Below, piece by piece: positions 30,931-59,628 of a DNA stretch of 64,000 bases; positions within the stretch are counted from its first letter, which is position 1; each line of letters starts with the position of its first letter. Source of the stretch: Microglena sp. YARC (taxonomy: Eukaryota; Chlorophyta; Chlorophyceae; Chlamydomonadales; Chlamydomonadaceae). The notes below the pieces were generated by a model. That model ran no database searches, was not told where the DNA came from, and saw only the letters and a program-made list of their open reading frames with translations. The position numbers and the translations under genes are program-made. Where the stretch lies: assembly GCA_022414725.1 (NCBI GenBank), contig CM039464.1, positions 57,332,681 through 57,396,680 on the forward strand, given 5' to 3'.

Positions 30931-33840
30931 GTGCTCGCTCATGTAAAAACTCGATCCCATATTTTAGAAATTGATCTTGGTTACATGAATCTGCGCAATT
31001 GTAAGGCTGTCCACAGTCTATGGCGGTGAGGAAATCGAGTTAATTGAAAGCCTTCTTGAATAAAAACTCGATCCCATGTTTTCAAACTTGATCTTGGTTA
31101 CATGGACCTACACCACTGTTAGGTTGCTCACAGTTTATGGCGGTCAGGTTATCAATTTAATTGAAAGCTTGCTCATACGAAACAATTCGATCCCATATGT
31201 TTAAACTTGATCTTGGTTACATGGATCAACACCACTGCAAGGTTGCTCAGAGTCTACGGCGGTCAGGTAACCCAGCTAATTAAAAGCTTGCTCAAACTCA
31301 TAACTGCATCCCATATTTTCAAACTTGATCTTGGTTACATGGATCTACATCACTGTAAGGTTGCTCACAGTCAACGGCGGTGAGGTAATACAGATAATTT
31401 GAAGCTTGCTCATACAAAACAACTCGATCCCATATTTTCAAACTTGATCTTGGTTACATGGACCTACACCAGTGTTAGGTTTCTCACAGTCTACGGCGGT
31501 CAGGTAATCAATTTAATTGAAAGCTTGCTCAAACTCAATACCTGCATCCATATTTTTCAAACTTAATCTTGGTTACATGGATCTACATCATTGTAAGGTT
31601 GCTCACAGAACATGGCGGTGAGGTGATCCAGTTAATTGAAAGCTTGCTCATACAAAACAACTCGATCCCATATTTTCAAATTTGATCTTGGTTACATGGA
31701 TCAACACCAGTGTTAGGTTTCTCACAGTCTACGGCGGTGAGTTAATCCAGCTAATTGAAAGCTTGCTCAGACTCACAACTGCATCCCATATTTTCAAACT
31801 TGATCTTGGTTACATGGATCTACATCACTGTAAGGTTGCTCACAGTCTATGGCGGTGAGGTGATCCAGTTAATTGAAAGCTTGCTCATACAAAACAACTC
31901 GATCCCATATTTTCAAACTTGATCTTGGTTACATGGATCAACACCAGTGTTAGGTTTCTCACAGTCTACGGCGGTGAGTTAATCCAGCTAATTGAAAGCT
32001 TGCTCAGACTCATAACTGCATCCCATATTTTCAAACTTGATCTTGGTTACATGGATCTACATCACTGTAAGGTTGCTCACAGTCTATGGCGGTGAGGTGA
32101 TCCAGTTAATTGAAATCTTGCTCATACAAAACAACTCGATCCCATATTTTCAAACTTGATCTTGGTTACATGGATCAACACCAGTGTTAGGTTTCTCACA
32201 GTCTACGGCGGTGAGTTAATCCAGCTAATTGAAAGCTTGCTCAGACTCATAACTGCATCCCATATTTTCAAACTTGATCTTGGTTACATGGATCTACATC
32301 TCTGTAAGGTTGCTCACAGTCTATGGCGGTGAGGTGATCCAGTTAATTGAAAGCTTGCTCATACAAAACAACTCGATCCCATATTTTCAAACTTGATCTT
32401 GGTTACATGGATCAACACCAGTGTTAGGTTTCTTACAGTCTACGGCGGTGAGTTAATCCAGCTAATTGAAAGCTTGCTCAGACTCATAACTGCATCAGGG
32501 TTGTCCAAACGGACCCCAGGAGTTGCTTCCTGGGACGCACCCAAATGAGTAGGTTGCGTCCAGGGACGCAGCCAATTTCGTAGGTTGCGTCCTGGGACGC
32601 AGTAAAGTTTGAAAGTTGCGTCCCAAAAATTCCTCTTTCCCCCTCCCACAGCAACAGCAGCTTGCTGCGTCCCACTGCGTCTCATTTTTTCTCCATGCTT
32701 GATGCGTCCCACTGCGGCCCACTGCGTCTCAATTTTTCTCCATGCTTGATGCGTCCCAGCGGCAGCAGCAGCAGCAGCAGCGGGCTTGGCAAAAAAAAAA
32801 ATCATCCGGCCTTCGCTGCTAGGTCGGAGCATTGGGCGTGCTGCGAGATTGCATTTTGACGGTTTGAATATTTTTGGAGAGATCGACCAGAATAAATCGA
32901 TCAAATCAAAAAATTCTAGGCTTTAGACTAGTGTGATGTTTGAACCCCGCTCATCCACTCAGGGCCTGGGGGCATGTGGGGGATTTTCAGGTTCGAGTCC
33001 ATTCAAATTATGTGGCTGAGAGAGTCCTTTGTGTCCTGCACCACCCACTGAGAAACTCTCGAGTCGGACGCATCAGACGCACTGGGGCGCATTGGGACGC
33101 ATGAGAACGCAGGGTATTGAAGTGAGACGCAACCAACTTCCAAAACCTGCGTCCCGGACGCAACCAATCTATGAGGCTGCGTCCGGGACGCAACCGACCC
33201 TGCCAATGTTGCGTCCTGGGACGCAACGGCCCTCCCCATGTTGCGTCCTGGGACGCAAGGACGTGCGTCTTGGACTACCCTGAACTGCATCCCATATTTT
33301 CAAACTTGATCTTGGTTACATGGATCTACATCGCTGTAAGGTTGCTCACAGTCTATGGCGGTGAGGTGATCCAGTTAATTGAAAGCTTGCTCATACAAAA
33401 CAACTCGATCCCATATTTTCAAACTTGATCTTGGTTACATGGATCAACACCAGTGTTAGGTTTCTCACAGTCTACGGCGGTGAGTTAATCCAGCTAATTG
33501 AAAGCTTGCTCAGACTCATAACTGCATCCCATATTTTCAAACTTGATCTTGGTTACATGGATCTACACCACTGGAAGGTTGCTCACAGTCTACGGCGGTT
33601 AGGTGATCCAGTTAATTGAAAGCTTGCTCATACAAAACAACTCGATCCCATATTTTCAAACTTGATCTTGGTTACATGGATCAACACCAGTGTTAGGTTT
33701 CTCACAGTCTACGGCGGTGAGTTAATCCAGCTAATTGAAAGCTTGCTCAAGCTCATAACTGCATCCCATATTTTCAAACTTGATCTTGGTTACACGGATC
33801 TGCACCACTGTAAGGTTGCTCACAGTCTACTGCTATGAAG
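30930..33840. repeat. 118-bp satellite, 18 monomers, dimeric higher-order repeat
   Basis: GATCTTGGTTACATGG recurs at 117-120-bp spacing: about 13 monomers from 30973 to 32395 and five more from 33308 to 33781. From about 31.4 kb two types alternate, one with GTGTTAGGTTTCTCACAGTC and AGTTAATCCAGC, the other with TGTAAGGTTGCTCACAG and AGGTGATCCAGTT, so the real period is about 237 bp. MITE 2 is inserted between monomers. Confidence 0.93.
32496..33282. mobile_element. hAT-like MITE 2 (787 bp) inserted in the satellite
   Basis: Left end CAGGGTTGTCCAAACG, right end GTCTTGGACTACCCTG, imperfect inverted repeats related to MITE 1. TSD AACTGCAT lies at 32488-32495 and 33283-33290, and removing the element leaves the satellite monomer continuous. 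The interior repeats GCGTCC.GGGACGCAACC, has GCAGCAGCAGCAG near 32763, and has no transposase. Confidence 0.88.
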
Positions 33841-34265
33841 TTAATAGGTCGAAGTTCCATGCATGCAGGAATAGCAACCCCCGAGGCTACAGTTGCTACT
33901 GCCCAACCTGTAGGTACTAGTGCAAAACAGCAGATTTCATTGCCAAGCACAATGAGCTGATGCAATGAGCCGCGAGAGGCACGGTGATGCGAATTTTCGT
34001 TGGGGAAATCGTAGACATGCTCCAGTTCCCTAGATTGAGCCCAAAGGATGAGGGAAACGACAAACGAAATCACCGCGTCCTCAGTCCGCAACCCTGAGTT
34101 CCGTAAGCAAAGATGTGCCCGTCCGAGGTAGTCTGCCCCCTGCGTGAATTGAACACGGGTCGTTTGGGTGTGAGTGAAATAGAAAAAACGATCGCCAGAG
34201 GAGGACGGGACATAACGTTTACAGCATGTCTGGGCCGACACGAAATAGCTTCTCTGTAAAATCAA
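33774..34265 (-). CDS. Hypothetical 163-residue ORF
   Basis: Minus-strand ATG frame with ordinary amino acid composition (ADYLGRAHLCLRNSGLRTED, then VISFVVSLILWAQS, a possible membrane or core helix). Its C-terminus runs into satellite sequence, so at least the end is not original. I recognise no domain. It may be a gene fragment caught in the CACTA element. Confidence 0.3.
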   Translation of the reverse strand: MILQRSYFVSAQTCCKRYVPSSSGDRFFYFTHTQTTRVQFTQGADYLGRAHLCLRNSGLRTEDAVISFVVSLILWAQSRELEHVYDFPNENSHHRASRGSLHQLIVLGNEICCFALVPTGWAVATVASGVAIPACMELRPINFIAVDCEQPYSGADPCNQDQV

Positions 34266-43386: not shown

Positions 43387-44819
43387 CAATCCAACACCCC
43401 AACTGCAACTCCCTCTCAAGCAACAGGACATGGCCAAAGCCAAAGAGGCAATCTCAAATAAATTTCTCCATCAATTTCAACACAGCCACATCAACATAAA
43501 TAAAGCCTGGACTATAGCACAAACTTTACTGGGAGAAGATAAAACATCTGCACACATCCAATCTATTAGACAAGAACTCACAGCCACCATGCCAGAAAAT
43601 CTTAACAGCATGGCAGATCATCTCATGATCACTCTTCACCAAGCTCTTTCCATCATGACTGACATATATCTGCCCCATTAAGTCTAGCACACCAGGCATA
43701 TTTTTGCACAGACAAACTGCTAAAACCTACAGACGTCTTAACTACCATATTAAAGCACTTCGAACAGCCTCCAATCACCTTGACCAACAACAATACATGG
43801 AGCTCAGAAGCACACCTCATACGGCAGGCACATACTCACCTACCACTAAAATTAAAATACAACAGCACCTACAAAACTTACTCCCCCCTGACAACTGCCT
43901 CTCTCTAACTGCTGATATTAAACAAAGTATTACAGAACTACGTCACATGCAGGCTGCACTCAAAGAGGAGAGAGCAACTGCCTCCATCAAGAAATTCAGA
44001 CGCCGCCTCAGCACACAGGCACGACAAACTCACAGGTATATTTTCTCTCCTGAAAATTACACACACCCACCCACTGCCCTACTGGATGCATCCTCAAACA
44101 CACTTAGCACCAGTACCCAGGGTCTCCTGGAAGTTTTGACCAAACACATGGGTAAACTTATGTCACCTCCCACACCACCCATCTTAGATGATTATACCCG
44201 ACATGCCACTCCCCCTCCATGGGAAACACACACAGACAAATATCACCTTGAAACTCCAGCCAACTCCATACAAACCACTGCCTCCCCTTACACCTATCTC
44301 TCCTCCTCAACCACCTATGATGACTGCATCAGGAAACTCTCCACTAACAAAGCCACAGGCCCAGACGGCATACCTAATGAACTACTTATGTGCCTCCCAC
44401 AGGAAATGCACCTCACCATACACAAACTCATGCAGCTAGTATGGATCCTGGGAGAAACACCAGACTGCTGGAAAATCTCCCACACAGTCATGCTCTACAA
44501 AAAACCAGATCCCTGCTTACCTCAAAATTACAGGCCAATAGGCCTTAACAATGCTGTAGCCAAACTCTGGACCTCTCTTGTTACCAACACTATTACTACC
44601 TACTCTGAAACCAATCACATTCTTAGTGCCTGCCAAGAGGGTTTCAGAAAAGACAAAAGTACCTATAGACAACTCTTGACCCTACTCCACAACATTGAGG
44701 ATGCTGCCCTCTTCCACCAGGACCTTCATGCTGCCTACTTTGACTTTAGCTCTGCCTTCAACATGATTGATCACCAAAAAACTTCTCTGCATTATGCACA
44801 GCTTGGGTTATACCCATGA
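43387..44819 (+). pseudogene. LINE reverse transcriptase, N-terminal two thirds
   Basis: LINE frame resumes at the TSD and runs through an Asn/Gln-rich linker; a stop and a frame change occur near 43680. RT motifs are NKATGPDGIPNELLMCLP (domain 1), WKISHTVMLYKKPDPCLPQN with YRPIGLNNAVAKLW (domain 2), CQEGFRKDKSTYRQL (domain 2a/3) and AAYFDFSSAFNMIDH, which carries the first catalytic Asp. The frame then breaks in the A-run near 44777. It would copy LINE RNA at the nicked target. Confidence 0.92.
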
Positions 44820-45447
44820 CACTATAGATACAATTAAAGGAATTTACACAAACTCTACTACACATATCCTCCTTAAAAATACATCTGGCTCCCCTATCCC
44901 CATCACTAGGGGCACTATCCAGGGAGACACTCTCTCCCCCTTACTACTCTTCATTATTTTTCTAGAACCCCTACACAGATGGCTCCGTTCTGGAGGACGA
45001 GGATACAGAGCAGCATCCCTACCCTCCACAACAGCAGATGAAAACCACACTAGCAGCTTGGGGTATGCTGACGACACTGCCGTCCTAACCGGCAGCTCAG
45101 AGGACCTTCGCATCCAATGTGGTAAAGTTCAAACTTTTAGTATCTGGTCGGGCATTCCTCTTAACGCCACTAAATGTGTGGTTAGTGGCATACTCCACAA
45201 ATCACACCCCTCACAACCTACTCACAACAACACTCTCAAACAAAGGCTAGACAAAATTCCTTTAGGTAATTCCTATGCTACCTACCAGCCGCCAGACCAA
45301 GCCTATAAATACCTGGGGGTTCACATCTCACTTACCTTAAATTGGAAAACTCAACTTCACTCTACTATTGAAACCATCCACAACAAAGGCTTGAGTATCC
45401 TCACTAAAGCTAAAAATAGGGCAACCCCACCCAATGTCTACGAATAA
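44767..45447 (+). pseudogene. LINE reverse transcriptase, active-site part
   Basis: Continues RT after the frameshift: RGTIQGDTLSPLLLFIIFLE (domain B), LGYADDTAVLTGS (the YADD catalytic motif), WSGIPLNATKC (domain D/E) and YKYLGVHISLTLNWK. All core residues are present. Frame ends at 45447; coding continues in another frame at about 45440. Confidence 0.92.
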
Positions 45448-46735
45448 TCTCACAATGTGTCAGAGCAGCTATTAAATACCCCATGATAGTAGCTCCCTTC
45501 TCACTAACCGACATTCATGTCATTGACAGAGCAGTATTAAAAACAGTTAAACTCTGCTGCTCCCTTCCTAGATCCTTTCCGACAAGAGCACTCCACCTCC
45601 CCAAAACAGAGGCAGGACTAGGGGTGCCCTCTCTACTCACTGAATATACTCAGATTACTGCAACAGCCCTCACCCAGTCCATGAACGACCAAGGTCACCT
45701 AGGAATTCTCACCAGGGCTCTTCTTGACAAATCAACCTCCACCATGACCACTCTAGATCCTCTCTCTCTCTCCCGCAAGCAACTTCAATATATGTCCCTA
45801 GCCCGCCAGCTGGAAATTATTAAAAAATCTGACATAAAAATTTCTTGGAATGACACAGAACTTCTTGACAAACTTAACATACACTCTCTCCCTCTTCCAC
45901 CACAGGCAATCCCTGTCTCACTCATGACTCCTTTCCACGACCTGGACATCTAATCATACCACGACCTGGTCACCCCCATGGGAACTCATCTTATCAGTAC
46001 TACAGACCTCTCTCTTATTACTTTACACAAAATTACTAAACACCACAAACGATCCCTGAACCGCCTCACCGCACACCTCTCCTCCCTCCAAACCGTCATT
46101 CCTCCAACTCACTCTGACCCACTCCCCCTCTCCCACAGGCAACTTGCGCCTGGCTACGCAATTTCGCAGAACACAACAGACAACGTTAAATTTCCTGCTC
46201 CTATCGAATCCTCCACCCCACTCACCCAGAGCTACCAACCTCACGCCACCGTTACTGATGCAGACTACGAGGCGGACCCCACTGGGGACCTGGAAGGAAA
46301 CCAATGGTGGGCGTGGCCCACGCAGATCGCAGGCAGTCACGCGCACCAAGCATGGGGCTGCCCCAACAGTGACGCCACCTGGTCAGCACGCCACTACTTG
46401 TGCAAATCTTGGATCCGACACTCCTCCTCCTCCAAATTCTACCGCGCATATAAAATAACTTCCACCTCGCACCCTGACAGGATCCGCGAGGCCATGACAT
46501 TCCCCGACAGCAGCGCACCTGCACCACCGGCGCGCCTGCTTCACCTTACTTACGGATCTCAGTACAGAGCCCTGCACATTACGAGCTGGCGGGGCAAGCG
46601 CTCTTACAGCGACGACAAACTTGCCACCACCACCGTTGTCCACGTCCAATGGGCCCCAACCATCATGCACAACGACCATATCAACTCCTACACACGCATG
46701 GGATACAGCATCCACCACTGCACACCTCTTACCTC
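45448..46735 (+). pseudogene. LINE post-RT region with an unplaced Trp-rich segment
   Basis: 45483-45953 encodes a thumb-like segment (RTFPTR-type: PRSFPTRALHLPKTEAGLGV), the usual sequence after LINE RT domains, ending at an in-frame TAA. The same frame continues at 45978. From about 46200 the composition becomes GC-richer and encodes EGNQWWAWPTQIAGSHAHQA, SARHYLCKSWIRHSSSSK and VVHVQWAPTIMHNDHI. This could be a domain for target or histone binding, but I cannot assign a fold. It is cut at 46735 by the solo LTR and resumes in frame at 47035. Confidence 0.6.
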
Positions 46736-47034
46736 TATCAGCTTGGATAACACTCCGGAGAGTGGACTTTGTGTGTGCAGCACGCCAATCTATAAATGCG
46801 GAGACGAGAATTAGTTACAAGCACAGGAGACCCATTAAGGGGCACCAGTGGAGGAAAGGGGGGCGGTAGCCTGGAACCTGATCAGGGTACAGGCTAGACA
46901 GCGCGTGTCAGAAGAACCGATGACGCAGTCAACAGGAAGCTGACATAGTACTGTCAGGACCGATAGTTCTAAGGGAGTACACAAGGAGTCACCAAGACAT
47001 AAAACAAGCGAGAGCACCGCTATTCATGCTGATA
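46736..47034 (-). mobile_element. Solo LTR of the copia-A family
   Basis: 299 bp, reverse complement of the copia-A LTR (TATCAGCTTGGATAA...ATTCATGCTGATA), flanked by TSD ACCTC at 46731-46735 and 47035-47039. No internal sequence, so it presumably arose by LTR-LTR recombination. It interrupts the LINE; the frame is kept across it. Confidence 0.92.
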
Positions 47035-48112
47035 ACCTCCACTACCTCCACCATACATTGGAAACCTCAATCTCACCATGCGGCTCACCTTGTTGAACTG
47101 GTGGGACAACCAGCATATGACCAATTAACCCACACCTTTAAAACCACTCCTCCGATAACCACACACCTCAATCCCAGGAAGGACATCCACCTCACTAACC
47201 TCCAGCAACAAGGCCAATGGGCCATCTCCCCAGGATTTAATGCTGACAATCATAATCTGGTTCACAAACTTTTGCACGTTGACACACACGACAGGCACCC
47301 AGACTGGGACATTCAACCACCCTCAGCCTACATTATACAAACAGGCATCCTAACTACTTTGGATGACCAATCCACACACACACATACCAACGCTTCATAT
47401 CTTTATAACCCCACAGGTCACTGTCTTGGGCACATTCCCAACGACAGGCTCACCTCTCTTAAACAAAAGTATGACCACTTTAAAAAATCACCACCCTACC
47501 AAATGGAACCAACTGACCCAAGGAGGAACATACCACACTGACTTAGCTGCCCTCTTCACCAGATACAGAGCTGCTCCTGCTGCCACTAACATTCTGTCTC
47601 CCTTCCTCTACCAAGCAGCAGCAGCTGCTCTGGGCATTACTCACCATCGTACCTCCAATCCTCTTAGCTACGATCAAAGCCTCACCAGCTTCTCTTCTAC
47701 CAGCCCTGCTGACCAGCTCTTTGGCTCCAACCAAGACCCCTTTCTTACCATCTGGACTGGGGGCTCACTTGTGGACATTCCCAACTCCACCACACAAGCA
47801 CACCAAGCTCTAAGGTGGGCTCTAGCCAGTGCTGACCATGCTGAAAATACTCTCAGCCCTACCTGCACCCTGATGCTCCTCCCTGATGACCTTGCTGCCC
47901 CTTACAAAACTCTCCTCCATCACTCCTGGATTCACTACATTGACTCTAGACCACAGTCTGAATTTTATACTACCTCTGAAATTTGGCTTGGCAGCAAATC
48001 TCACACCCCACCCTCCACTCAAAAATTACACCTCATTCTTATATGCAACCCTCACAGCCAAGAGACTTACTTTCCTAAACTCCCAGATTTTATTGACCAA
48101 TGGACATACTAA
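47035..48112 (+). pseudogene. LINE domain between RT and RNase H, possibly methyltransferase-like
   Basis: Frames 47035-47541 and, after a slip near 47490, up to a TAA at 48110-48112. The second part reads DPFLTIWTGGSLVDIPNSTT, then QAHQALRWALASADH, TCTLMLLPDD, HHSWIHYIDSR and LHLILICNP. This order of a hydrophobic strand plus Pro-x-Ser, an amphipathic helix, an LLP strand and a later hydrophobic strand resembles the C-terminal half of Dam/phage-type N6-adenine methyltransferases, where the first block would be NPP[YF]. The catalytic motif is not intact here. The similarity is my reading only. Confidence 0.35.
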
Positions 48113-48565
48113 ATGCAAAGCCTCTCCTCATCCTGGGAGCCCTCTGCTATCACACCACCTCCCACACTTACTTTCACTGACATCGTCATCACCTACCCTC
48201 GGAAACTTAAATCTCTTGCCAAAAATCCCTGGCAACCTCCACTCCACCAACACCCTCCTCCCTCTCCTCTTACCATTATCCACCCTTGTTTTTACCTTGC
48301 TACCCCCTCCTCTGGCCTCCAGGTCTACACAGATGGTAGCCTAATAAAAGGTAAACCAGGGCACCCTAGCAAAATAGGTGCTGCAGTATATGTCCCGGCT
48401 GCAGGACAAAGCTACACCATCAACCCTGGGGGAATAGGGGCCACCAAAACTAACAACCGGGCAGAACTGGTAGCCATCCACCAAGCCCTTCTCAACATTG
48501 ATTATGACAAATCTCTTACCCTTCATACAGACAGCCTCTGCTCTCTTCAACTTATAAAAAAATGA
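48113..48565 (+). pseudogene. LINE RNase H, N-terminal part
   Basis: LQVYTDGSLIKG (first catalytic Asp), GAAVYVPAAGQSYTINPGG, NNRAELVAIHQALLNI (catalytic Glu) and LTLHTDSLCSLQLIKK (second Asp) are the canonical type I RNase H blocks. The frame breaks in the A-run at about 48556 and continues in the next feature. Known role in LINEs: removal of the RNA template strand. Confidence 0.92.
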
Positions 48566-49071
48566 TTCATGACCCCACCACAACAACCCGTTCCATTCAT
48601 ACTGAATTACTGCAATCAATTCAAAAACACCTCATTCAACGCATCCTGCATGGCTCACACACCACCCTTTGTAAAGTCCGTTCCCACACAGGTATCCTTG
48701 GAAACGACAGAACAGACACTCTGGCACGCAAGGCAGCTGAGCACCCTACCTCAACTAATTGTACTGATAACACTGGGGAAATCCCCCGCCACAATGTTTA
48801 CTGGCCTACAGTTCAACCTCCTCGTACACCCATGGGAGATATTCCCCCAAGAATTTTAGCACCTAACCTTACACAAGGTATCACCTCTAACCTACCCACT
48901 AGCTGCCACCTTGGCCAACAACCTCTTAAAGGGATTTATGCAACCACCTGGGCTGATAACACCCCCCACCAACTTCCTCAAGCAAGTAACAAATTTTGGA
49001 CCTCAACCCTTATCCAGCATAAAACTAAATTCCACATCCTTAAAACACGGTGTGATGGAACGTTGCGATAA
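48562..49071 (+). pseudogene. LINE RNase H C-terminus and tail
   Basis: LCKVRSHTGILGNDRTDTLA (His and last Asp) completes the RNase H fold. Later HKTKFHILKTRCDGTLR resembles the tail of RNase-H-bearing LINEs (ILKxRxGxLWNxK), but the expected CCHC finger is missing because the frame closes at 49071. The element's coding capacity ends here. Confidence 0.88.
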
Positions 49072-49200: not shown

Positions 49201-49604
49201 TAATCCGCGGAATGCCTGAAACTGTGAAACACACATACATGCTTGTTTCCAACTTCTTGAAGTTATCCATTGTTTCTGTTTTACACAGAAGAGATAGGGT
49301 GCGCAAAGCAATATACTAGGCATAGTCTTGATTTTTTATACTTGTGAAAAATAAACATGGGTGGTGCATCTGCCAGGTGTAGCCAAGTCTGCGTGTGTAG
49401 CGTTGGAGACATCTTGACAGATGACACACAAAGCACACGACCTGTATTGTCAGAGTGTAAGTAAGTGGATACACTCAACGGAACATATAAATGAAACGTC
49501 TCTGTGTACGGCCACACGCGGTATTACTTAAAGCCTACAGTCGGCGGAACAGTATCTTGTTTGTCAGAACTGCTTTCATTTTTTCATGCACACAGATAAT
49601 AAGC

Positions 49605-50058
49605 ATGGACTTCACTAATACATCACCAGCTCAGCTAGGCATCATCATCGCTGACGGAGGGCCACACAAGAATGCTGCATTGGCTGCACTTGTCCAAACT
49701 GCTGAGCGAGCTGATGAGGCAGTGCGGGTGGCGCATGCGGCTGTTGAAGCTGCCGTAGCCCTGCTGCGAAACAACAACCGGTATGATTTGCTTTGTTGTC
49801 TCTATAGCCATTTGAACAACCTAGACAACATCATTAGTATAACACACGACGCTTGTGATTGTGATTGCACACAGGTGGGTCATCAACTCAACGGAGAAAT
49901 CGGTGCTTCAGACTGCCCTGCAAGTCCTTCACACGCATTGCATGACAGACTTCAACCGAGCTGTGATCACGATATCGACTTGGTGCAATATCGTCATTCA
50001 ACCAAGTGGCCATGCCGCTCTGGTGCAGGGAGGGATTGGAAGGCAGGCATGGGGTTGA
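49605..50058 (+). CDS. Two-exon gene, unknown product (about 118 residues)
   Basis: ATG 49605 starts MDFTNTSPAQLGIIIADGGP and an Ala-rich helix (AERADEAVRVAHAAVEAAVA). ACAACCG|GTATGATTTG at 49780/49781 and GCACACAG|GTGG at 49874/49875 define a 94-bp intron; splicing keeps frame into VINSTEKSVLQTALQVLHTH and on to a stop at 50056-50058. The unspliced frame quickly turns into poor sequence, which supports splicing. Downstream, another frame (HDNWINREWYYFASWYHRMR to 50172, before a GTTAGT donor-like site) also looks coding, so a further exon or a frameshift is possible. No known domain. Confidence 0.5.
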
Positions 50059-50244
50059 TCCATTGCGTCATGGAGTTGTACATGATAATTGGATTAATAG
50101 GGAATGGTACTACTTTGCCTCCTGGTATCACCGGATGAGGAAGATGCTCAGGCCCCTATTTTGGAAACAAAAGGTTAGTTCCCCCCCCCCTAAAAAGTCG
50201 ATAAAAAAATCTCAGAATTAAATTATCACTACTCAAGAGAAAGT

Positions 50245-51904: not shown

Positions 51905-52105
51905 TTTCGAGGCGCATGGGGACATGTGTCGGATATGACTTCTTTACACTCGTGGTTCGAGGCGCATGGGGACACGTGTCGTCTCAAGCAGACTTCTGCT
52001 TGACAACTATGTCGGGAGTATGAAAGATGAATCGCGGGACCCACGGAGTGGGGCAGGGGAATTCATTTGCGGACTCGTGTGAAGCTTCGAGGCGCGCGAA
52101 AACAC
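51905..52105 (+). repeat. Palindrome block, copy 2
   Basis: GAGGCGCATGGGGACACGTG, AAGCAGACTTCTGCTTGACA, ATGAATCGCGGGACCCACGG and GCAGGGGAATTCATTTGCGG in this order. It lies immediately upstream of the ORF at 52132. Confidence 0.88.
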
Positions 52106-52131
52106 CTTGGATTACGCCTTGAGGGATAGGG

Positions 52132-52827
52132 ATGCTGATCGAGAGTTGGGACGCGCGTCATCATGCGGCTTTAGTCGACGACAAGGGTTTCGTGTGCGCC
52201 TCAAAAAACGAGTGTAAGAAACGCAAAATCCGTACAGATTACAGCCGTACAATGGCTACACTTAATACTTTTAAGGGGGCCTTGGCCACGCCTAAGTACA
52301 GTCCATCGAAGCTCGAAGACAACTCTTGCAAGCCCCCAAGTGCTTCTTCAGATCAGCAAAAGCAAGCTAGCGTGTCGGAATCAAGTCGGAATCAAGGCCG
52401 CCTTATGATCGAATTCCGTGGTGAGCGCAAGCAAATGCCGCGTCTACGAGGTTGGTTGAGGCCGGGAGCCGATGGGCTTTGGTGCAACATATTTAGTATC
52501 GAGCCAAGACTTCGCTTCAAGTACGTGGGCCATGTTACATTCGATGACGATATGTGGGAGTGCAACGCAGTATGGTTGCATTGCCTACATTTACCCAACG
52601 GATCAATTTATACAGCGTCGGTCTTTGAGATGCTGAAGGAGGCAGTCAACATTTTGTCACACACACCCGGTGCTGCAAGGTACACACTCCTCGACTCGCA
52701 TGATGATGCGCACCGTTTGGGAGGAGCGCACCTAATTCTCACAAGGGGTTGGTCATTCGTTTTCTACGCCATGACCGGGAGCAGGTTAGGGGGCAAGGTC
52801 TTACTGGCCGTAGCAAGGCCAAAGTAA
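52132..52827 (+). CDS. Unknown gene, 231 residues
   Basis: ATG frame right after the palindrome block. The N-terminal 90 residues are Lys/Ser-rich and probably disordered. The rest looks globular: LMIEFRGERKQMPRLRGWLR, WCNIFSIEPRLRFKYVGHVT, CNAVWLHCLHLPNGSIYTAS, RYTLLDSHDDAHRLGGAHLI and LTRGWSFVFYAMTGSRLGGK. The HDDAHR stretch is striking but I cannot match it to a family. The stop overlaps AAA|GTAAGT, a good donor site, and TACTAATACC...TTATTTACATAG (52988-53031) is a good branch/acceptor, so an intron may lead into the coiled-coil below; the phases I tested do not join in frame. Confidence 0.55.
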   Translation: MLIESWDARHHAALVDDKGFVCASKNECKKRKIRTDYSRTMATLNTFKGALATPKYSPSKLEDNSCKPPSASSDQQKQASVSESSRNQGRLMIEFRGERKQMPRLRGWLRPGADGLWCNIFSIEPRLRFKYVGHVTFDDDMWECNAVWLHCLHLPNGSIYTASVFEMLKEAVNILSHTPGAARYTLLDSHDDAHRLGGAHLILTRGWSFVFYAMTGSRLGGKVLLAVARPK

Positions 52828-52964
52828 GTAGTTACAAGTTTATATTGTACCTCCGCTCCGGCAATCAATGTAATGTAATGTTACGTAATTGGAAGTTGAA
52901 ACGCTATCTTGCGCTTATTCTGGACAACAAGTGGAAAGCTATACTTTATAAACAATCAATCAAT

Positions 52965-53408
52965 ATGATTGACAAGTGTTTTTCTCTACTAATACCTATC
53001 TGCATCGCTACCTTCGCTTTTATTTACATAGCTCGACTGAAGATTGAGCTTGAGACTGAGCGCGCTCGAAATAAGGCAGATGCTGCTCGACTGAAGATTG
53101 AGCTTGAGCTTGAGACTGAGCACTCTCTAAAGAAGGCAGATGCTTCTCGAGTGAATAGTCTGGAGATTGAGCTTGAGACTGAGCGCGCTCGAAATAAGGC
53201 ATATGTTGCTAGACTGAAGATTGAGACTGAGCGCGTAGAAGCACTTGAGAAGCAACTGAGGTACGAACTGTCAAGCATGACTGCCGAGCAATGGAATTCC
53301 CTGAACGATCATGACAGGCGTCTCAATGAGGATCTTTGCAAACAATACGGAATCCCCTTCCCCAACATTCAGGAGTCATGCCTCGATTCCGCGATTCATC
53401 TTTCATGA
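52965..53408 (+). CDS. Coiled-coil protein, possibly membrane-anchored
   Basis: From ATG 52965: MIDKCF, then a hydrophobic stretch LLIPICIATFAFIYIA (one membrane helix), followed by heptad repeats built from LKIELETERARNKADAARLK units repeated about four times (also at DNA level), and a C-terminal region MTAEQWNSLNDHDRRLNEDL ending before the next palindrome block. The hydrophobic segment overlaps a potential intron end, so it may be non-coding and the coiled coil may belong to the upstream gene. It may mediate oligomerisation; no enzyme motif. Confidence 0.5.
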   Translation: MIDKCFSLLIPICIATFAFIYIARLKIELETERARNKADAARLKIELELETEHSLKKADASRVNSLEIELETERARNKAYVARLKIETERVEALEKQLRYELSSMTAEQWNSLNDHDRRLNEDLCKQYGIPFPNIQESCLDSAIHLS

Positions 53409-53560
53409 GCGCATGGGGACACGTGTCGTCTCAAGCAGACGTCTGCTTAACAAACTATTTCGGGTGCATGAAAGAGGAATCGCGGGACCCACGGAGTGGA
53501 GCAGGGGAATTCAGCTGCGGACTCGCGGAAACACGTGTCGTAGGATCTGACTTGTCCATC
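53402..53560 (+). repeat. Palindrome block, copy 3
   Basis: GCGCATGGGGACACGTGTCG, the perfect palindrome AAGCAGACGTCTGCTT, GAATCGCGGGACCCACGGAG, GGAATTCAGCTGCGGACTCG and AAACACGTGTCGTAGGATCT. Starts at the end of the coiled-coil gene. Confidence 0.9.
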
Positions 53561-53564
53561 GGAG

Positions 53565-53690
53565 GAGGACACACGCAAACGGCGGAACACTGTCGAATGT
53601 ATCGGAGGACACACGCAAACGGCGGAACACTGTCGAATGGCACACGCAGGACCCTCATTGACACACGCAAACGGCGGAACACATGTAGAC
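53565..53690 (+). repeat. Short repeat ACACACGCAAACGGCGGAAC, three copies
   Basis: Copies near 53569, 53609 and 53660; the first two continue with ACTGTCGAATG. Confidence 0.88.
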
Positions 53691-53959
53691 GACTCATCTT
53701 CATCGTCCATCACTCAATCACTCACTCACTCAGATTAAAGGGACCGGCGCTTTGCGTACACAGGCATGCCCAATCCTTGTGTATTGCTGGAGGTACGATC
53801 GCCGGGCATCATAAAAGACCCTCCTCGCCCCGAGACTGCATATTTTTCTTTTCTTCTCCTTATCATCCTCTTCCCTAGCGCGTCATTCGCACACCACCCT
53901 CCTCTTTCCTTTCTTCCATCTACAAATAACGCAAAATACATACACACACGAATATCTAT

Positions 53960-53961
53960 CC

Positions 53962-54017
<56 letters not shown>

Positions 54018-54020
54018 TTC
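53960..54020. repeat. (TC)n pyrimidine microsatellite
   Basis: CTCTCTCT with occasional TTTC, about 60 bp. It lies about 100 bp upstream of the next ORF and could act as a plant-like 5' pyrimidine patch. Confidence 0.9.
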
Positions 54021-54116
54021 CACACGCCACACAGACGGATGTGTAAAGCCTTCTTTTGAGATTGGAGTCATTGCCACATCCACGTATGCGCGAAGTAAAG
54101 AGTCTTCATCGACGCG

Positions 54117-54692
54117 ATGCCGACACAACCTTGTCAGCCCATTTCAAACCCAGTCCGCCAACTAGGAAGGGCACTGGACATGGACAGTCTCGACACATCC
54201 AAGTTTCTTGATCGCCTCCACTGCCGGAATGTCAGCCGTCTCAATGCACTGCGGACGTCATCGGCAACTTCCGGCGATCCACGCGTCTTGGAGTATAACG
54301 CATTGCACCACCTAATTAAACAAAAACACCACACATCCCCATCGTCACGTTTGTTCCTCGTCGCTGTGGAGTACGTCTTCGATGACGGCTGCTTCAAGCG
54401 CGCCAACGGGGACGCCCTTGTATTCTCACATGCTATCAACACACTTTTCGTCGTGGAGACGAAAATCCTCAAAGCCCCTGCCAAAACTGGAAATGCCAAG
54501 CTGTTGAAAGCCATACAGCAGGCCACTATGTGCGCGAGTAGACTTTCGTCCTGGATACCGCATCTCATCAACATTGACATGAAAGACGGAACAACACTTG
54601 GATTTGTAACAATTCGTCGTATGATCGTGACAGCTGTGGATCGCGGTGGACGCGTCTTCAGTCAAGATATCCGCAGCCAGGAAATTGACTAA
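54117..54692 (+). CDS. PD-(D/E)XK nuclease-like protein, 191 residues
   Basis: ATG 54117 to TAA 54692. A helical N-terminus (TSKFLDRLHCRNVSRLNALR) is followed by FLVAVEYVFDDGC, then GDALVFSHAINTLFVVETKI: Gly-Asp, a hydrophobic strand and Glu-x-Lys, the D...ExK arrangement of the PD-(D/E)XK fold. Next come KLLKAIQQATMCASRLSSW, where many members have a Gln-containing helix, and a last beta-rich part (TLGFVTIRRMIVTAVD). Members cut DNA in repair, recombination, restriction and virus life cycles. It sits between two palindrome blocks, near the primase-helicase. The motif is good, the role unknown. Confidence 0.6.
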   Translation: MPTQPCQPISNPVRQLGRALDMDSLDTSKFLDRLHCRNVSRLNALRTSSATSGDPRVLEYNALHHLIKQKHHTSPSSRLFLVAVEYVFDDGCFKRANGDALVFSHAINTLFVVETKILKAPAKTGNAKLLKAIQQATMCASRLSSWIPHLINIDMKDGTTLGFVTIRRMIVTAVDRGGRVFSQDIRSQEID

Positions 54693-54754
54693 CTTAGTTA
54701 ACTTAATTAACTCAGGTAACTTGATTAACTGAAGGTGGAACTTTGGCAAAACAT

Positions 54755-54865
54755 TGGAGGTACCGAGATTCGAACCCGGATCTTATATATCGCTCAGTGG
54801 GCAACATGATCAAGGAATGAAGAAAATTGGCTTAACCTCACGCACTACCACTGAGCTACAACCCC
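54755..54865 (-). tRNA. tRNA-like Pol III gene with an insertion, degenerate or intron-bearing
   Basis: Minus strand: GGGGTTG acceptor strand, TAGCTCAGTGGTAGTGC (a full A-box/D-arm), and CCGGGTTCGAATCTCGG (B-box/T-arm), then TACCTCC, which pairs with the start apart from one mismatch. TTTT follows a few bases later as a Pol III stop. The middle is about 35-40 nt too long for a tRNA and I could not close an anticodon stem with confidence, so it may be an intron-containing tRNA, a pseudogene or a SINE head. No anticodon is assigned. Confidence 0.5.
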
Positions 54866-55067
54866 GTTGAAAAATTAGCAACTAAACTATTGTTTTAATA
54901 AAAACGAATGTAAACAATTTTGATCCATATAGGTCTCGGCATTGTTTTGCTGAGTATGTAACGTTCCCCCTCTCCCCCAGATGGATGTAACGTTCCCTCT
55001 CTCTCTACAGTAGCAGCATTGTTTTGCTGTGTGTGTAACGTTATCCTCTCTCTACAGAAACAAACCT

Positions 55068-55255
55068 CAAGCAGAAGTCTGCTTGACAACTATTTCGGGA
55101 TTATGAAAGGGGAATCGCGGGACCCACGGAGTGGGGCAGTGGAATTCAGCTGATGACTCGCGGAAACACGTGTAGGATCTGACCTTCTTACACGCGCGCT
55201 TTGAGGCGCATGGGGAACACGTGTAGTCTCAAGCAGACGTCTGCTTGACCCACGG
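55068..55255 (+). repeat. Palindrome block, copy 4 (one full, one partial)
   Basis: AAGCAGAAGTCTGCTTGACA, GAATCGCGGGACCCACGGAG, GGAATTCAGCTGATGACTCG and ACACGTGTAGGATCTGACCT, then GAGGCGCATGGGGAACACGT and a second palindrome AAGCAGACGTCTGCTT at about 55233. It lies upstream of the primase-helicase gene. Confidence 0.9.
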
Positions 55256-55269
55256 GGTGAATTGTGAAA

Positions 55270-55390
55270 TTGTAAAAGTGGTACCCAAAGTCACACTTCT
55301 AAAACACGCTTTGCTATCTCTGCTTGGAGGTCAATCACGGAATTGAATGCGGACTCGTGTGCAGGATCTGACATGTTTTATGGTGTAAAC
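55270..55390 (+). promoter_or_regulatory. Sequence shared with the primase-helicase intron
   Basis: AAAGTCACACTTCTAAAACACGCTTTGCTAT and CTGCTTGGAGGTCAATCACG (positions 55291-55345) are close to AAAGTCACAATTCTAAAACA...TTTGCTAT and CTGCTTAGAGGTCAAGCACG in the 144-bp repeats at 57.8-58.3 kb. It may be a mobile hairpin relic or a shared regulatory segment upstream of the ATG at 55541. Confidence 0.45.
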
Positions 55391-55540
55391 AGGATCAGAG
55401 TAAGCAAAATGTAGATGTATCAGACCAAAGGGTTATCCACACGAATCACCATTTCAACCACGCAATTGGATTATCCGACTGAACAAGGTTGAAACGATGC
55501 CGACGGACGCAACAAAACAACCCAAGGCCAACTTAGCGCC

Positions 55541-56323
55541 ATGCCCACCCATCATGGGGCTGGGAGCAAACTGGCACAGGGCGCAGGCGCAAAGGCGAGC
55601 ATGCAGGCAGATGCGACGATCATGCACGCACGCGCGCAGATGCAGCTGCAGGACCCGTTCAGTGGATGGAGACAGTTCGGATGCTACAAGGAATGGACAG
55701 ACGCAAACGAGGCGCTGCAAAGACTCAAGGGACACGCGAGACACGCGTTCGAGATCATACCGTTCGGAAAGCCATGCAAGCCGTACCTTGACATCGACGG
55801 TCCGCCACTTCCGAACGACCAGGTGCCCTTCCCAGACGTCGCCGCGTTGGTCTCACACACAGAGGACGCAATCAAGATGATCTTCAGCAACGACTACGGA
55901 ATCCAGATCGACGTCGACAACGACCTCATATGGCTCGTCAGCCCAAACGCCAAGAAGCTCAGCCTGCACCTCATCATCGACACGAAGAGAGAAGGAACGC
56001 CGCTCCACGTGTACAGCAGGAACCACCAGTCAGACACCACAGGCGCAGCACACCTCGCCATGAGACTGCAGCAGCTAGACCCAAACGGAGTCGGGAAGCT
56101 CGTAGACATAGGCGTGTACACAAGGGACAGGGAGATGCGCATGCTAGGGTCGTGCAAGTTCAACAAGGACGCGGACTTGGTCCTCGTCCCGCTAAAGCAG
56201 CACCACAAGGATGACCCAGACACAGCACTCAGGACAGTCATCTCAAACGTGCCAGAGGATGCCGCAGTCATACAGGTGCCAGAGCACATACCGAGATACG
56301 TCAAGAAGAACGGGATCGCATGA
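55541..56323 (+). CDS. Primase module (archaeo-eukaryotic primase-like) of the primase-helicase
   Basis: First ATG after an upstream in-frame stop. After an Ala-rich lead, RHAFEIIPFGKPCKPYLDID carries the D-x-D-like acidic pair of AEP primases. LIWLVSPNAKKLSLHLIIDT corresponds to the S/N-x-K-x-SxH strand, and VYTRDREMRMLGSCKFNKDA to the late R...GS.K block seen in virus and PrimPol-type primases. Expected role: primer synthesis at replication. The frame ends at TGA 56321-56323, but the same frame continues open into the zinc/helicase part, so the TGA probably interrupts one long gene. It sits where CGA (Arg) would be. Confidence 0.7.
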   Translation: MPTHHGAGSKLAQGAGAKASMQADATIMHARAQMQLQDPFSGWRQFGCYKEWTDANEALQRLKGHARHAFEIIPFGKPCKPYLDIDGPPLPNDQVPFPDVAALVSHTEDAIKMIFSNDYGIQIDVDNDLIWLVSPNAKKLSLHLIIDTKREGTPLHVYSRNHQSDTTGAAHLAMRLQQLDPNGVGKLVDIGVYTRDREMRMLGSCKFNKDADLVLVPLKQHHKDDPDTALRTVISNVPEDAAVIQVPEHIPRYVKKNGIA

Positions 56324-57290
56324 CCAGCACGACCGCGCACGCAAACAGTCGCAGACGCAGTCAGAGCGGCGGGAACCATCATCGCAAAGGCCGTAGAGAA
56401 GGAACCGCACGTCCGACGCGCCGACATAATCGTGCGCATGCTCGACCTACTCAGACGAGACATGCACCCGTCAGCATTCCACGACAGACGACCCGCAGAG
56501 GACGCATTCGATCGAGCCGTAGGCGTCAGGTTCAACTACAGTGACAGGAGTGAACCGTGCTACACAGGAAACATACACAACGGAGAGCAGAACATGCGAT
56601 GCTTCGTAGACACAGCAGGAAACTGCCTCGTAAAGTGCTCATCCGCCACCTGCGACAACCACGCGCCCGCGTGCATCGGAAGACTCGCGGAACCAGCAGG
56701 CGATGCGTGGGACGCGGGAGCCGTGCACGTCAACAGTAGGTACATATACATCGACGCATGCCTAGAGATGCAGCAGGCGGTCGACGTGTGGTTAGACACG
56801 GAGCGCAAGGACGTCAACACGCTCTCAGTGCGCAGCCCGATGGGGTCAGGAAAGTCCACCATGCTAGACGCACTCCTAGAACGCGTGGGAGAGGACAAGA
56901 CCGTGCTCGTCGTCACATACCGACAGTCGCTCGCGCTAGAGCACAAGAGAAAACTGGCGCGCAAGGGATTTGTATCATACCTAGACGCCGACGTCACCCC
57001 ACAGGACCTCAGGCGAAGGGACAAGACACCGCGCGTCATCTGCCAGATCGAGTCGCTACACAGGCTCGCAGAGCACACGTGCATGCAATACCTCACATCG
57101 GGCTTTGACATAGTTGTGCTCGACGAGGTGGAGTCGCTGCTGAGACACTTCATGTCGCCAACCGTCGTCAACCCATTTGCTGAGATACAGGGGCTGGCGG
57201 ACACGCTCAACGCGACGACAACCGGCGTCGTCACAATGGACGCGACATGGGGCAGCGTCACGAAAGAATTCCTCAAGCAGGCCGGCTCGT
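56324..57290 (+). pseudogene. Zinc site and helicase ATPase part of the primase-helicase
   Basis: Same frame as the primase. MRCFVDTAGNCLVKCSSATC with DNH gives a Cys/His cluster, as in the zinc site that follows primase domains in UL52-like proteins. Then SVRSPMGSGKSTMLDALLER (Walker A), LVVTYRQSLALEHKRKLARK (motif Ia), VICQIESLHRLAEH, DIVVLDEVESLLRHF (Walker B, DEVE) and TTGVVTMDATW (motif III-like): a superfamily 2 helicase closest, by these motifs, to herpesvirus origin-binding proteins. A one-base frameshift near 57285 moves coding to the next frame. No sequence is restored here. Confidence 0.75.
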
Positions 57291-57809
57291 CGTCAACGAC
57301 TACCGGAGCACAGAGAACGCGCGCACATTCGCCATATCGAAGGACGAGGTGACATGGAGCGCGCAGATCCGAGACGACATCATCGCCGGCAGGAACGTCG
57401 TCGTCGTCTCGCTCAGCCAGGAGCGCGCGATGCAGGTGCACAAGGCCGCACTTGACACATTCGACGACTCGAAGGACGCGGCCAGACTCTGCCTGCTGCA
57501 CACGTCCAAGACAGCAGACGCAGTCAAGGCGAAGCTCATAGACGTAGACGCACTCTGGAGCAGCAAACGGATCGTCGTGTACACGCCGACCATATCGGCG
57601 GGGATCGATTTCAGCACTCAGCACTTTGACAGGATGTACCTATACCTGTGCCCCGGGTCCGCGGCGCCGATGGGTGCGTTGCAGATGACCGGACGAGTGC
57701 GTCACCTGGTAGACACCGACGTCAGGACGCTCGTAGCCAAGAACATGCGAGTGGCACGCGATGCAACCCGACAACACTTGACGCACGTCGACCTCTACCA
57801 GTGGCTCAG
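57286..57809 (+). CDS. Helicase C-terminal RecA part
   Basis: After the frameshift: VVNDYRSTENARTFAI, VVVVSLSQERAMQVHKAAL (motif IV), LLHTSKTADAV, VVYTPTISAGIDFSTQHFDR (motif V) and GALQMTGRVRHLVD (motif VI with its arginine finger region). Exon end: GTGGCTCAG|GTGAGAG at 57809/57810. Unspliced, the frame stops at once with TGA, supporting use of the donor site. By family this half couples ATP hydrolysis to origin unwinding. Confidence 0.75.
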
Positions 57810-58341
57810 GTGAGAGTAGAGAGGTGGCGGGTAAAGTCACAATTCTAAAACACTCTTTGCTATATAATTAAGTATGACTTTACCCACCACTGCTTAAAAA
57901 CTGACGCAGGTGGATGGAAGGTTTCGCAACCTGCTTAGAGGTCAAGCACGTACCGCGTGATAGAGAGGTGGCGGGTAAAGTCACAATTCTAAAACACTCT
58001 TTGCTATATAATTAAGTATGACTTTACCCACCACTGCTTAAAAACTGACGCAGGTGGATGGAAGGTTTCGCAACCTGCTTAGAGGTCAAGCACGTACCGC
58101 GTGATAGAGAGGTGGCGGGTAAAGTCACAATTCTAAAACACTCTTTGCTATATAATTAAGTATGATTTTACCCACCACTGCTTAAAAACTGACGCAGGTG
58201 GATGGAAGGTTTCGCAACCTGCTTAGAGGTCAAGCACGTACCGCGTGATAGAGAGGTGGCGGGTAAAGTCACAATTCTAAAACACTCTCTGCTATATAAT
58301 TAAGTATGACTTTACCCACCACTGCTTAAAAACTGACGCAG
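57810..58341 (+). repeat. 144-bp tandem repeat of an intron plus exon edge (four copies)
   Basis: GAGGTGGCGGGTAAAGTCAC starts at 57821, 57965, 58109 and 58253, exactly 144 bp apart, almost identical. Each unit holds an intron ending in CTGACGCAG and 47 bp of coding exon starting GTGGATGGAAGG. Splicing from the first donor (57809/57810) to the last acceptor (58341/58342) keeps frame; the three inner 47-bp pseudo-exons would shift it. Within each unit GTGGCGGGTAAAGTCA and TGACTTTACCCACCAC form a 16-bp hairpin. Confidence 0.9.
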
Positions 58342-59458
58342 GTGGATGGAAGGTTTCGCAACCTGCTTAGAGGTCAAGCACGTACCCGCGATTGACGGTG
58401 GAGATGACCACACACTGCAAGAGCTCTCGGGTGGCGCTCTCGCCCCGTTGTTTGCGACCGTGGCTCCACCGACACTGAAGATGACTGTCGAAAGCTACTT
58501 TCTAGCTGAGATATACAACGCCAGCTTCGACTACGTGTCCTGCTTCGCCAACCTTCTGGAGCATGCAGGTCACCGAGTGGACCTCGGCACAAGCTACGCT
58601 GCGGTCAGTGCCGCCCGCGTGCACGCGCCGGCTGAGGGCGACGTGGAGGCGACGAGCGAGTTCCTGTTGCGCGTCCTCAAGGCTCAGGAGCAGCTGGATG
58701 CGCTCACCGGAGCTGTCCCTGTCGCCGTCGCTGCCCCTGACAATGTCCCTGTCGCTGCCCCTGTCCCTGTCGCCGCCACAGACATCCTCAGCGATGTGCC
58801 CAGTGCCATGCGGCGCAAGGATCTCATGTATGCTATCGAGCAGCGGGTGATGGCCAACGACGCGAGCGAGGACGACAAGTTCCTTCTGTACCTGAGCCGC
58901 TACTGCTCTGCATGGGGCATCGACCGCGTCGACAAGGAGTTCCTGCTGGAGAACAAGCCTGGTGCTGTCGGTTCTCCGAAGGCGCGGCTCCTGTCGCGCC
59001 TGCTGTGCCCGATCCTGCGCCCGGTGCGCGGCGCCGACGTGCACACGACTGAGCACTCAGGTTTGCTGAAGATCGTGTTGATCGAGGAGACACTCGCTGC
59101 TCTGGGGTTTTTGTCCCCGTTCGACACTACGACCGTCATCCCGAACCTGATGACGGCATTCGACACCAAACTGAAGGGAACACAGATGTTCAGCGACTAC
59201 GCAAACACCGCTCGGCTGTTCAGCCAGGCCTCGTGCGGTGTTCGCGACGGGTGGGACCTGCGCAAGGTGTCCAAGGCGGTTAAGATGATCTTGAACGCCG
59301 TGGGTCTGGATATGGTGAGCGTGACGAAGCGGGTGCAGGTCAAGGGCAAGAGAACTCAGGAGGAGAGGAACTACCGCCTGTGCCCTGAGAGTGTCTGCCG
59401 TATAATGGGCGTTCCTGCTTCCGAACGGATTTTTTATTTTACTGAAATCTTACGATAA
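58342..59458 (+). CDS. C-terminal part of the primase-helicase, about 370 residues
   Basis: Begins at the last acceptor, in phase with the helicase exon (LR|WMEGFATCLEVKHVP). Contains a Pro-Val-Ala linker (VPVAAPVPVAATD), then helical regions DLMYAIEQRVMANDASEDDK, SRYCSAWGIDRVDKEFLLEN and a basic C-terminus VTKRVQVKGKRTQEERNYRL before MGVPASERIFYFTEILR. No catalytic motif. By position it corresponds to the C-terminal region of large OBP/primase replication proteins and could bind the origin or the primase. GC-rich at third codon positions, unlike the AT-rich flank after 59458. Confidence 0.65.
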
Positions 59459-59628
59459 ATATTGTAAGATCGTTTTCGCAAATTAATTGATTTTGCTTTT
59501 TTGGTGTATTTTACGAAAATATCTTACAATTTATTTTGTAAGATCGTTTTCGCAAATTAATTGATTTTGCTTTTTTGGTGTATTTTACGAAAATATCTTA
59601 CAATTTATTTTGTAAGATTGTTTTGTTG
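59459..59628 (+). repeat. 81-bp tandem duplication with hairpins, just after the gene
   Basis: TTGTAAGATCGTTTTCGCAA, TTGATTTTGCTTTTTTGGTG and ACGAAAATATCTTACAATTTA are repeated about 81 bp apart. TCTTACAA and TTGTAAGA make an 8-bp stem across TTTATT. May serve as a 3'-end signal or be the element end. Confidence 0.85.

What the first reader, a model, noticed from the sequence alone, without database searches (positions are those of the whole stretch)
55541..59458. Primase fused to an OBP-like helicase in a plant/algal-type nuclear locus
One plus-strand gene combines an AEP-type primase module, a Cys/His zinc cluster and a superfamily 2 helicase with motifs I-VI (MGSGKST, DEVE, SAGIDFS, QMTGRVRH) and a large C-terminal domain. 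Such primase plus origin-binding-protein helicase fusions belong to large DNA viruses or self-replicating elements, not to normal host replication. It is broken by one TGA and one frameshift but otherwise open for about 1,200 codons and has at least one intron, so it may be a domesticated or recently integrated replicon. Its neighbours (PD-(D/E)XK ORF, coiled-coil ORF, small unknown genes) may be part of the same element.
Basis: partly seen in the sequence, partly recalled or inferred. Interest (0 to 1): 0.85.

Follow-up and report, generated by a model that had tools for sequence, protein, structure and literature searches.

The report
Endogenous giant-virus primase–helicase gene, decayed copy
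This is a broken copy of a DNA-replication gene of a giant virus that has settled many times in the chromosomes of an unidentified eukaryote; the gene type is known, but here it carries an intron that is shared by its copies.

Summary
55497-59403 (+) encodes an AEP primase, a zinc cluster, a UL9/OBP-type SF2 helicase and a C-terminal domain. Helicase: Herpes_ori_bp 4.6e-23. Primase: no Pfam family, but the family profile matches human PrimPol at 3e-13. The copy is more decayed than reported: two frameshifts, a stop, and loss of the 3' end at 59403. The gap before the last exon is a predicted GT-AG intron, 57810-58341.

The 568-Mb genome holds at least 107 loci of the helicase part, the window included, and 11 more with other parts. 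Copies are constrained (dN/dS 0.17). The setting is endogenous giant virus: 39 kb from one copy lies an NCLDV capsid fragment, with histone, P9 minor-capsid and fibre genes in the 30 kb read between; D5-type genes follow at 15 of 108 loci. The neighbours at 49.5-55 kb recur beside other copies.

AEP-UL9 fusions are known from mimivirus, asfarvirus, mriyaviruses, OsHV-1 and an Ectocarpus insert. New here: a separate clade, high copy number, a shared intron. Domestication is not supported.

The parts
55497..56320 (+). N-terminal AEP primase module (motifs YLDIDG, KLSLHL, VDIGVYT..DREMR); the first ~28 codons lie in another frame, so a frameshift near 55580
56321..56323 (+). in-frame TGA stop that breaks this copy
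56324..57290 (+). zinc cluster (CYTG..H..C..C) and N-terminal half of the UL9-like SF2 helicase (MGSGKST, DEVE)
57283..57809 (+). C-terminal half of the helicase (SAGIDFS, QMTGRVRH), in another frame: frameshift near 57290
57810..58341 (+). predicted GT-AG intron; 144-bp unit (intron plus first 44 bp of exon 2) in four tandem copies; imperfect palindrome with AT-rich centre in each unit
58342..59403 (+). exon 2: C-terminal domain of unknown fold, cut at 59403; in other copies its end recurs, 72% identical, on a T5orf172-like ORF
59404..59624 (.). foreign AT-rich repeat that truncates the gene; a 29-bp stretch of it also lies beside a capsid locus
52123..53408 (+). orfA/orfB, one 424-aa frame beside another copy (L034), two pieces here; the coiled-coil half has 60-bp repeats
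49491..50138 (+). orfD, 215 aa, parts shared with L031 (DNA) and L087 (by eye)
51962..52077 (.). interspersed ~117-bp repeat between the viral ORFs (also 53409-53551 and 55066-55249)

Best explanation
A decayed copy of a replication gene of an endogenous giant virus (Nucleocytoviricota type, GEVE). In relatives with open frames one protein would load on or melt viral DNA with its UL9-like SF2 helicase and lay primers with its AEP primase; the C-terminal domain, whose end recurs on a T5orf172-like ORF, would bind DNA. Shown: the domains by profile, their motifs, the constraint on them, the intron position, the genomic linkage to D5-type genes and, at one copy, to capsid-type genes. Inferred: every biochemical step, origin binding above all. 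The window copy cannot make the protein: two frameshifts, a stop and a lost 3' end. It sits in a ~10-kb viral island (49.5-59.4 kb) between a LINE-type element (by eye) and repeat-rich DNA.
For: Profiles: Herpes_ori_bp; family profile to UL9 structures 2e-33 and to human PrimPol 3e-13. Family: 70 proteins; 24 family rows form one helicase group, 93/99. Copies: 125 matches, 107 loci (118 of 308 candidates scored); dN/dS 0.17 for 465 pairs of 31 copies; 0.33 AEP (30 copies), 0.12 second helicase half (30), 0.43 part of exon 2 (27); AEP motif I kept in 28 of 30 copies. Giant-virus setting: 59 matches to NCLDV capsid PF04451, 57 over the cut-off, best 1.1e-57. At copy E a capsid fragment lies 39 kb away; the 30 kb read in between hold Histone 8.6e-46, P9 minor capsid 6e-10, S74 fibre 3.2e-15. 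D5_N gene 2.7-11.5 kb downstream on the same strand at 15 of 108 loci, 0 upstream or opposite within 12 kb; on C1-C5 14 of 97 against a shifted mean of 0.18, maximum 3 of 1000 shifts. Best named capsid relative among the 120 listed is Tetrabaena socialis, 62%, on a 576,757-base contig; the same alga holds a 47% relative of this protein, on another contig of 33,932 bases.
Against: No structure could be predicted. 23 of 40 capsid loci on C1-C5 have no copy of the gene within 300 kb; at 30 and 50 kb there is no clear excess (1 against 0.53; 3 against 0.87), and the excess at 300 kb (17 against 4.25) may partly reflect shared insertion-prone regions. Gene loci outnumber capsid loci by more than two to one. 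The direct capsid link is read at one copy, and 4.3 kb of its path (C1:36769101-36773373) was not read. IMG/VR gave only distant helicases, 22-28% to P0011, and none with A3 or the VYTKDREMR pattern. No DNA polymerase gene was looked for.
Confidence: 0.82

Rival explanations
1. The gene belongs to a smaller replicon of its own (polinton-like virus, plasmid or transposon) that often lands inside or beside endogenous giant viruses.
For: More loci of the gene (107) than capsid loci (47), and many far from any capsid gene; two different upstream gene blocks; D5_N is very common in this genome, 614 first-look candidates.
Against: Virus-type ORFs run on for 20 kb or more upstream of copy B (fibre/RCC1 and LRAT-like by Pfam, the rest by eye); P9 minor capsid, histone and S74 genes lie between the capsid fragment and copy E. 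Element ends were not searched for, so this rival is not excluded.
Confidence: 0.13
2. A domesticated host gene family kept for a host function.
For: Constraint between copies, dN/dS 0.17; a spliced gene structure.
Against: More than 100 dispersed loci, many broken, beside viral genes at the copies read; the window copy is decayed; relatives occur on varied metagenome contigs.
Confidence: 0.02
3. A mirus- or herpes-type virus, not a nucleocytovirus.
For: Closest solved helicases are herpesvirus OBPs; mirusviruses are intron-rich (PMC12768974, abstract and passages).
Against: NCLDV capsid and P9 genes lie near a copy; the helicase group is separate from the herpes OBP P0079. HK97-type capsid or terminase genes were not searched.
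Confidence: 0.03

Closest known systems
AEP + UL9-like helicase of mimivirus (R8), asfarvirus (F1055L), OsHV-1 and mriyaviruses (PMC11253617, passages; PMC1594570, table passage)
   Same: Same order: AEP primase, then UL9-like SF2 helicase; replication role proposed.
   Different: The IMG/VR helicases found here are only 22-28% identical to family member P0011 and form a separate group in the helicase tree; the named R8 and F1055L proteins themselves were not compared. Intron; own C-terminal domain.
Ectocarpus siliculosus region C OBP (PMC2373305, passages)
   Same: AEP fused to UL9-like helicase, endogenous in an alga beside viral pieces, 1162 aa.
   Different: Reported there without the zinc domain, which is present here; a complete ORF there; not aligned here.
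Full-length relatives: Tetrabaena socialis P0043 and metagenome proteins such as P0035
   Same: 34-51% identity to the L034 query, all motifs, about 1030-1200 aa (P0061 1353).
   Different: 22 of the 23 A3 rows read straight through the intron position (printed); P0023, 93% identical, ends inside the intron.
Herpesvirus origin-binding protein UL9 (PDB 9hgi and others)
   Same: Helicase core, both halves.
   Different: No sequence match outside the helicase; origin-binding domain not found by sequence.
Endogenous giant viruses of green algae, e.g. Cymbomonas (PMC10675990, parts 1-2 of 5 and passages)
   Same: Many endogenous NCLDV and small-virus pieces in one algal genome.
   Different: That text has no 'primase' and one 'helicase'; its assembly is 914 Mb, this one 568 Mb.

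Membership tests
AEP-UL9 fusion primase-helicase | AEP motifs I, II, III in the N-terminal domain | tested here: met
   Profile to PrimPol 3e-13 covering all three regions; invariant in 25 rows: Y98, D100, S157, H159, D205
AEP-UL9 fusion primase-helicase | UL9-like SF2 helicase on the same chain | tested here: met
   single ORFs of 811-851 aa in four other copies
AEP-UL9 fusion primase-helicase | AEP fold | not testable with these tools
   Structure prediction switched off
AEP-UL9 fusion primase-helicase | primase and helicase activity | not testable with these tools
   needs protein
Endogenous nucleocytovirus (GEVE) | NCLDV major capsid gene linked to the gene | tested here: met
   At one copy, 39 kb apart, viral genes in the 30 kb read between, 4.3 kb unread; excess of copies within 100-300 kb of capsid loci, none clear at 30-50 kb. 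For the window copy the nearest capsid match is ~253 kb away
Endogenous nucleocytovirus (GEVE) | D5-type primase-helicase | tested here: met
   15 of 108 loci, (150 of 614 D5_N candidates scored)
Endogenous nucleocytovirus (GEVE) | family B DNA polymerase, A32 ATPase, VLTF3 | not tested
   VLTF3 query not answered; the others not asked
Herpes UL9 origin-binding protein | C-terminal origin-binding domain | tested here: inconclusive
   No sequence match beyond the helicase; fold not testable
Introner (mobile intron) | near-identical introns in unrelated genes | tested here: not met
   126 matches in 40 loci: 29 within 6 kb of a helicase match, the other 11 carry parts of exon 1 and exon 2; 40 of 127 candidates were scored, and very common words are skipped by the search
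Domesticated host gene | intact frame at this locus | tested here: not met
   two frameshifts, a stop, 3' loss

The most novel reading that the evidence does not exclude
A giant-virus lineage that copies itself in the host nucleus through an intron-bearing initiator gene: the intron was there before the family spread to 100+ loci and stayed while the protein was under selection, and its tandemly repeated palindromic units with AT-rich centre, which also lie ~200 bp upstream of the gene at 4 of 6 loci and were not found elsewhere in 218 kb searched, are the sites that the OBP itself recognises (a built-in origin or autoregulatory array).
Probability: 0.08. Interest if true: 0.75.

Novelty: new member of a known kind. 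Interest (0 to 1): 0.42.

Why it matters
It adds a distinct clade of AEP-UL9 replication proteins, with a relative in the green alga Tetrabaena, and shows that one such gene carried an intron before it spread to more than a hundred loci. An intron in a core replication gene points to nuclear expression, which makes the question of where these viruses replicate testable.

Tried and rejected
Rejected: introner. A conserved consensus RNA fold of the intron: fold_alignment gave -1.81 kcal/mol and 0 pairs with two-sided change; of 10 single folds 8 have z of -1.64 or lower and 2 do not (L026 -0.44, L017 0.33). So the palindrome is seen in most variants but its conservation is not shown. IMG/VR scans with the piece, A1, P0011, A3 and a pattern found no relatives; A2 gave 40 distant helicase loci from 62 stretches. 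Phage records: 64 with a match, the 20 listed at 23.8-24.9%. In one search orfC gave no usable set of copies. The host was not identified: Cymbomonas was set aside on assembly size; eukprot names carry no species. Gene numbers of eukprot models put 2 of 4 capsid models within 20 numbers of a helicase model (random share 0.0098), on the unproven assumption that numbers follow the chromosome. A note says 34 of 36 for the intron; by distinct copies it is 30 of 31 (L004 lacks the donor motif; L022 is completed by L034, where a LINE sits in the intron), and L017, L020 and L023 lack the usual acceptor of the first unit. Literature listings for Herpes_ori_bp, UL9, AEP, GEVE and intron terms showed no title or abstract on this clade; most subscription journals are not held.
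Full report
What is there. On the plus strand, 55497-59403, lies a gene for a primase, a zinc cluster, a superfamily 2 helicase and a C-terminal domain. The helicase pieces match Herpes_ori_bp at 4.6e-23 and 1.7e-8 and solved herpesvirus origin-binding proteins at 5.6e-12. The primase piece has no Pfam family. By itself it matches human PrimPol at 4.1e-4 for the whole sequence; a profile of 25 rows, this piece and 24 relatives, matches PrimPol at 3.1e-13, aligned over motif I, motif II and the region of motif III. Y98, D100, S157, H159 and D205 of the piece are invariant in those rows.

State of this copy. The first ~28 codons stand in the frame of ORF 55404-55880, the rest of the primase in that of 55493-56320; then come a stop at 56321-56323 and a change of frame near 57290. 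Other copies run on to a different C-terminus.

Intron. Between the helicase and the C-terminal part lies a predicted GT-AG intron, 57810-58341, built on a 144-bp unit in four copies. Eukprot gene models of close relatives splice there (P0002, P0003, P0025). Of 31 distinct copies looked at, 30 have donor and exon 2 start at this place (L022 is completed by L034, L004 lacks the donor motif; L017, L020 and L023 lack the usual acceptor of the first unit). The number of units runs from one to eight in those copies, and 14 matches stand in a row on contig C944. A genome search with the first intron gave 126 matches in 40 loci (40 of 127 candidates scored); 29 loci lie within 6 kb of a helicase match, and the 11 others, fetched and compared, each carry parts of exon 1 and exon 2. 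As far as this search reaches, the intron travels with the gene and is not a dispersed introner. 22 of 23 rows of alignment A3 read straight through the position; the exception, P0023, 93% identical, ends in the intron. Each unit of the window holds an imperfect palindrome with an AT-rich centre; 8 of 10 intron variants fold better than shuffles (z -1.64 or lower), 2 of 10 do not, and an alignment fold gave no covariation. Similar units, in part shortened, lie ~200 bp upstream of the gene in the window, L031, L033 and L034; L032 has a 31-bp piece further upstream and L035 none; no other place in the 218 kb searched matched.

Copies. The window is C3:57332681-57396680 of a 568-Mb assembly. The helicase piece has 125 matches (118 of 308 candidates scored), 107 loci after merging within 5 kb, the window's own included. 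By hand count of the list, 20 places match residues 1-323 with an open frame of 780 aa or more and no stop. Among 31 copies dN/dS is 0.17 (465 pairs), 0.30 for the 123 pairs with dS under 0.06, 0.16 and 0.14 for the more distant ones; window against its nearest copy dN .0062, dS .0109, on 7 differences. The primase part gives 0.33, the second helicase half 0.12, part of exon 2 0.43. These loci are the best-scoring ones, so the sample leans towards young and intact copies.

Setting. Window 52158-55053 recurs at 96% beside copy L034, and pieces of 49551-50235 and 52549-55317 beside L031. A second type of upstream block carries RCC1/fibre, S74 and, just under its cut-off, LRAT; further upstream of one of these, paralogues of orfC and orfD reappear, judged by eye. 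L031 has a D5_N gene downstream, 1.3e-17. Genome-wide, D5_N gave 150 scored of 614 candidates; 15 of 108 loci have one 2.7-11.5 kb downstream on the same strand, none upstream or opposite within 12 kb; chance shifts give 0.18 on C1-C5 against 14 of 97 observed.

Capsid link. NCLDV capsid PF04451 has 59 matches, best 1.1e-57; 57 of them, after two below the cut-off were dropped, merge to 47 loci. 17 of 40 capsid loci on C1-C5 lie within 300 kb of a copy against 4.25 by shifting, 0 of 2000; at 100 kb 9 against 1.61, 0 of 2000; at 30 and 50 kb there is no clear excess (1 and 3), and 23 of 40 have none within 300 kb. The window's own nearest capsid match lies ~253 kb off. Where a capsid fragment lies 39 kb from copy E, the 30 kb read in between (4.3 kb next to the copy were not read) hold a histone (8.6e-46), a P9-type minor capsid protein (6e-10), two S74 proteins (3.2e-15, 1.3e-5), a WLM-type peptidase just under its cut-off (1.3e-5) and a TnpB-like piece (5.9e-7). 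The best named relative of the capsid among the 120 listed is Tetrabaena socialis, 62%, on a 576,757-base contig.

Relatives. The protein search returned 70 proteins: eukprot gene models, metagenome proteins, full-length ones at 34-51%, P0043 of Tetrabaena socialis (47%), and at 28% an elephant betaherpesvirus OBP. In a helicase tree the 24 family rows form one group, 93/99, apart from IMG/VR helicases and the herpes OBP; several outgroup branches are long and their places unsure.

How it would work. By analogy with UL9 and with viral primase-helicases: the protein binds DNA, opens it and primes synthesis. The C-terminal end recurs, 72% identical, on a T5orf172-like ORF (T5orf172 itself below its cut-off), which hints at DNA binding. 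None of this was measured.

Known before. The fusion of AEP and UL9-like helicase is printed for asfarvirus and mimivirus (PMC1594570), for mriyaviruses and OsHV-1 (PMC11253617) and for an endogenous piece in Ectocarpus (PMC2373305), all seen as passages. This is a new member of that kind, in a clade of its own, with an intron and a very high copy number.

Noticed in passing
L085:499-945 (-): Histone H3-like gene (PF00125 8.6e-46) inside endogenous giant-virus DNA near a capsid fragment.
   Followed up: partly
window 54755-54865 (-): tRNA-like hit (Rfam 30.7 bits, gathering 29, E 0.021) inside the viral block between orfC and the gene; ARAGORN finds none.
   Followed up: no
window 7287-8363 and 8381-9601: Two 71-bp tandem arrays, 15 and 17 units, whose units are reverse complements of each other, facing across 17 bp.
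   Followed up: no
window 30948-32496 and 33283-33845: 119/237-bp tandem array in two blocks.
   Followed up: no
window 14051-19615 (-) and 43659-49071 (+): Copia-type retrotransposon (1094-aa frame) and LINE-type reverse transcriptase frames; judged by eye from the translations.
   Followed up: no
L036/L037 (IMGVR_UViG_3300037485_001433): 34.7-kb viral contig whose two 12.7-kb ends appear to be the same sequence in opposite orientation, each with a UL9-like helicase: long terminal inverted repeats or an assembly artefact; the ends were not compared.
   Followed up: no
G000, whole genome: 614 first-look candidates for D5_N (150 scored): this host is loaded with virus-type primase-helicases, perhaps of several kinds of virus.
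   Followed up: partly
L082:3463-4242 (+), L088:7261-8067 (+), L080:6305-6934 (-): Recurring caspase-like frames (by eye; the two tested have no Pfam hit) in the viral flanks.
   Followed up: partly
L032, L033 and L035, downstream of the gene: The end of exon 2 (window 59053-59403) is repeated downstream of the gene as separate pieces or fused to another ORF.
   Followed up: partly
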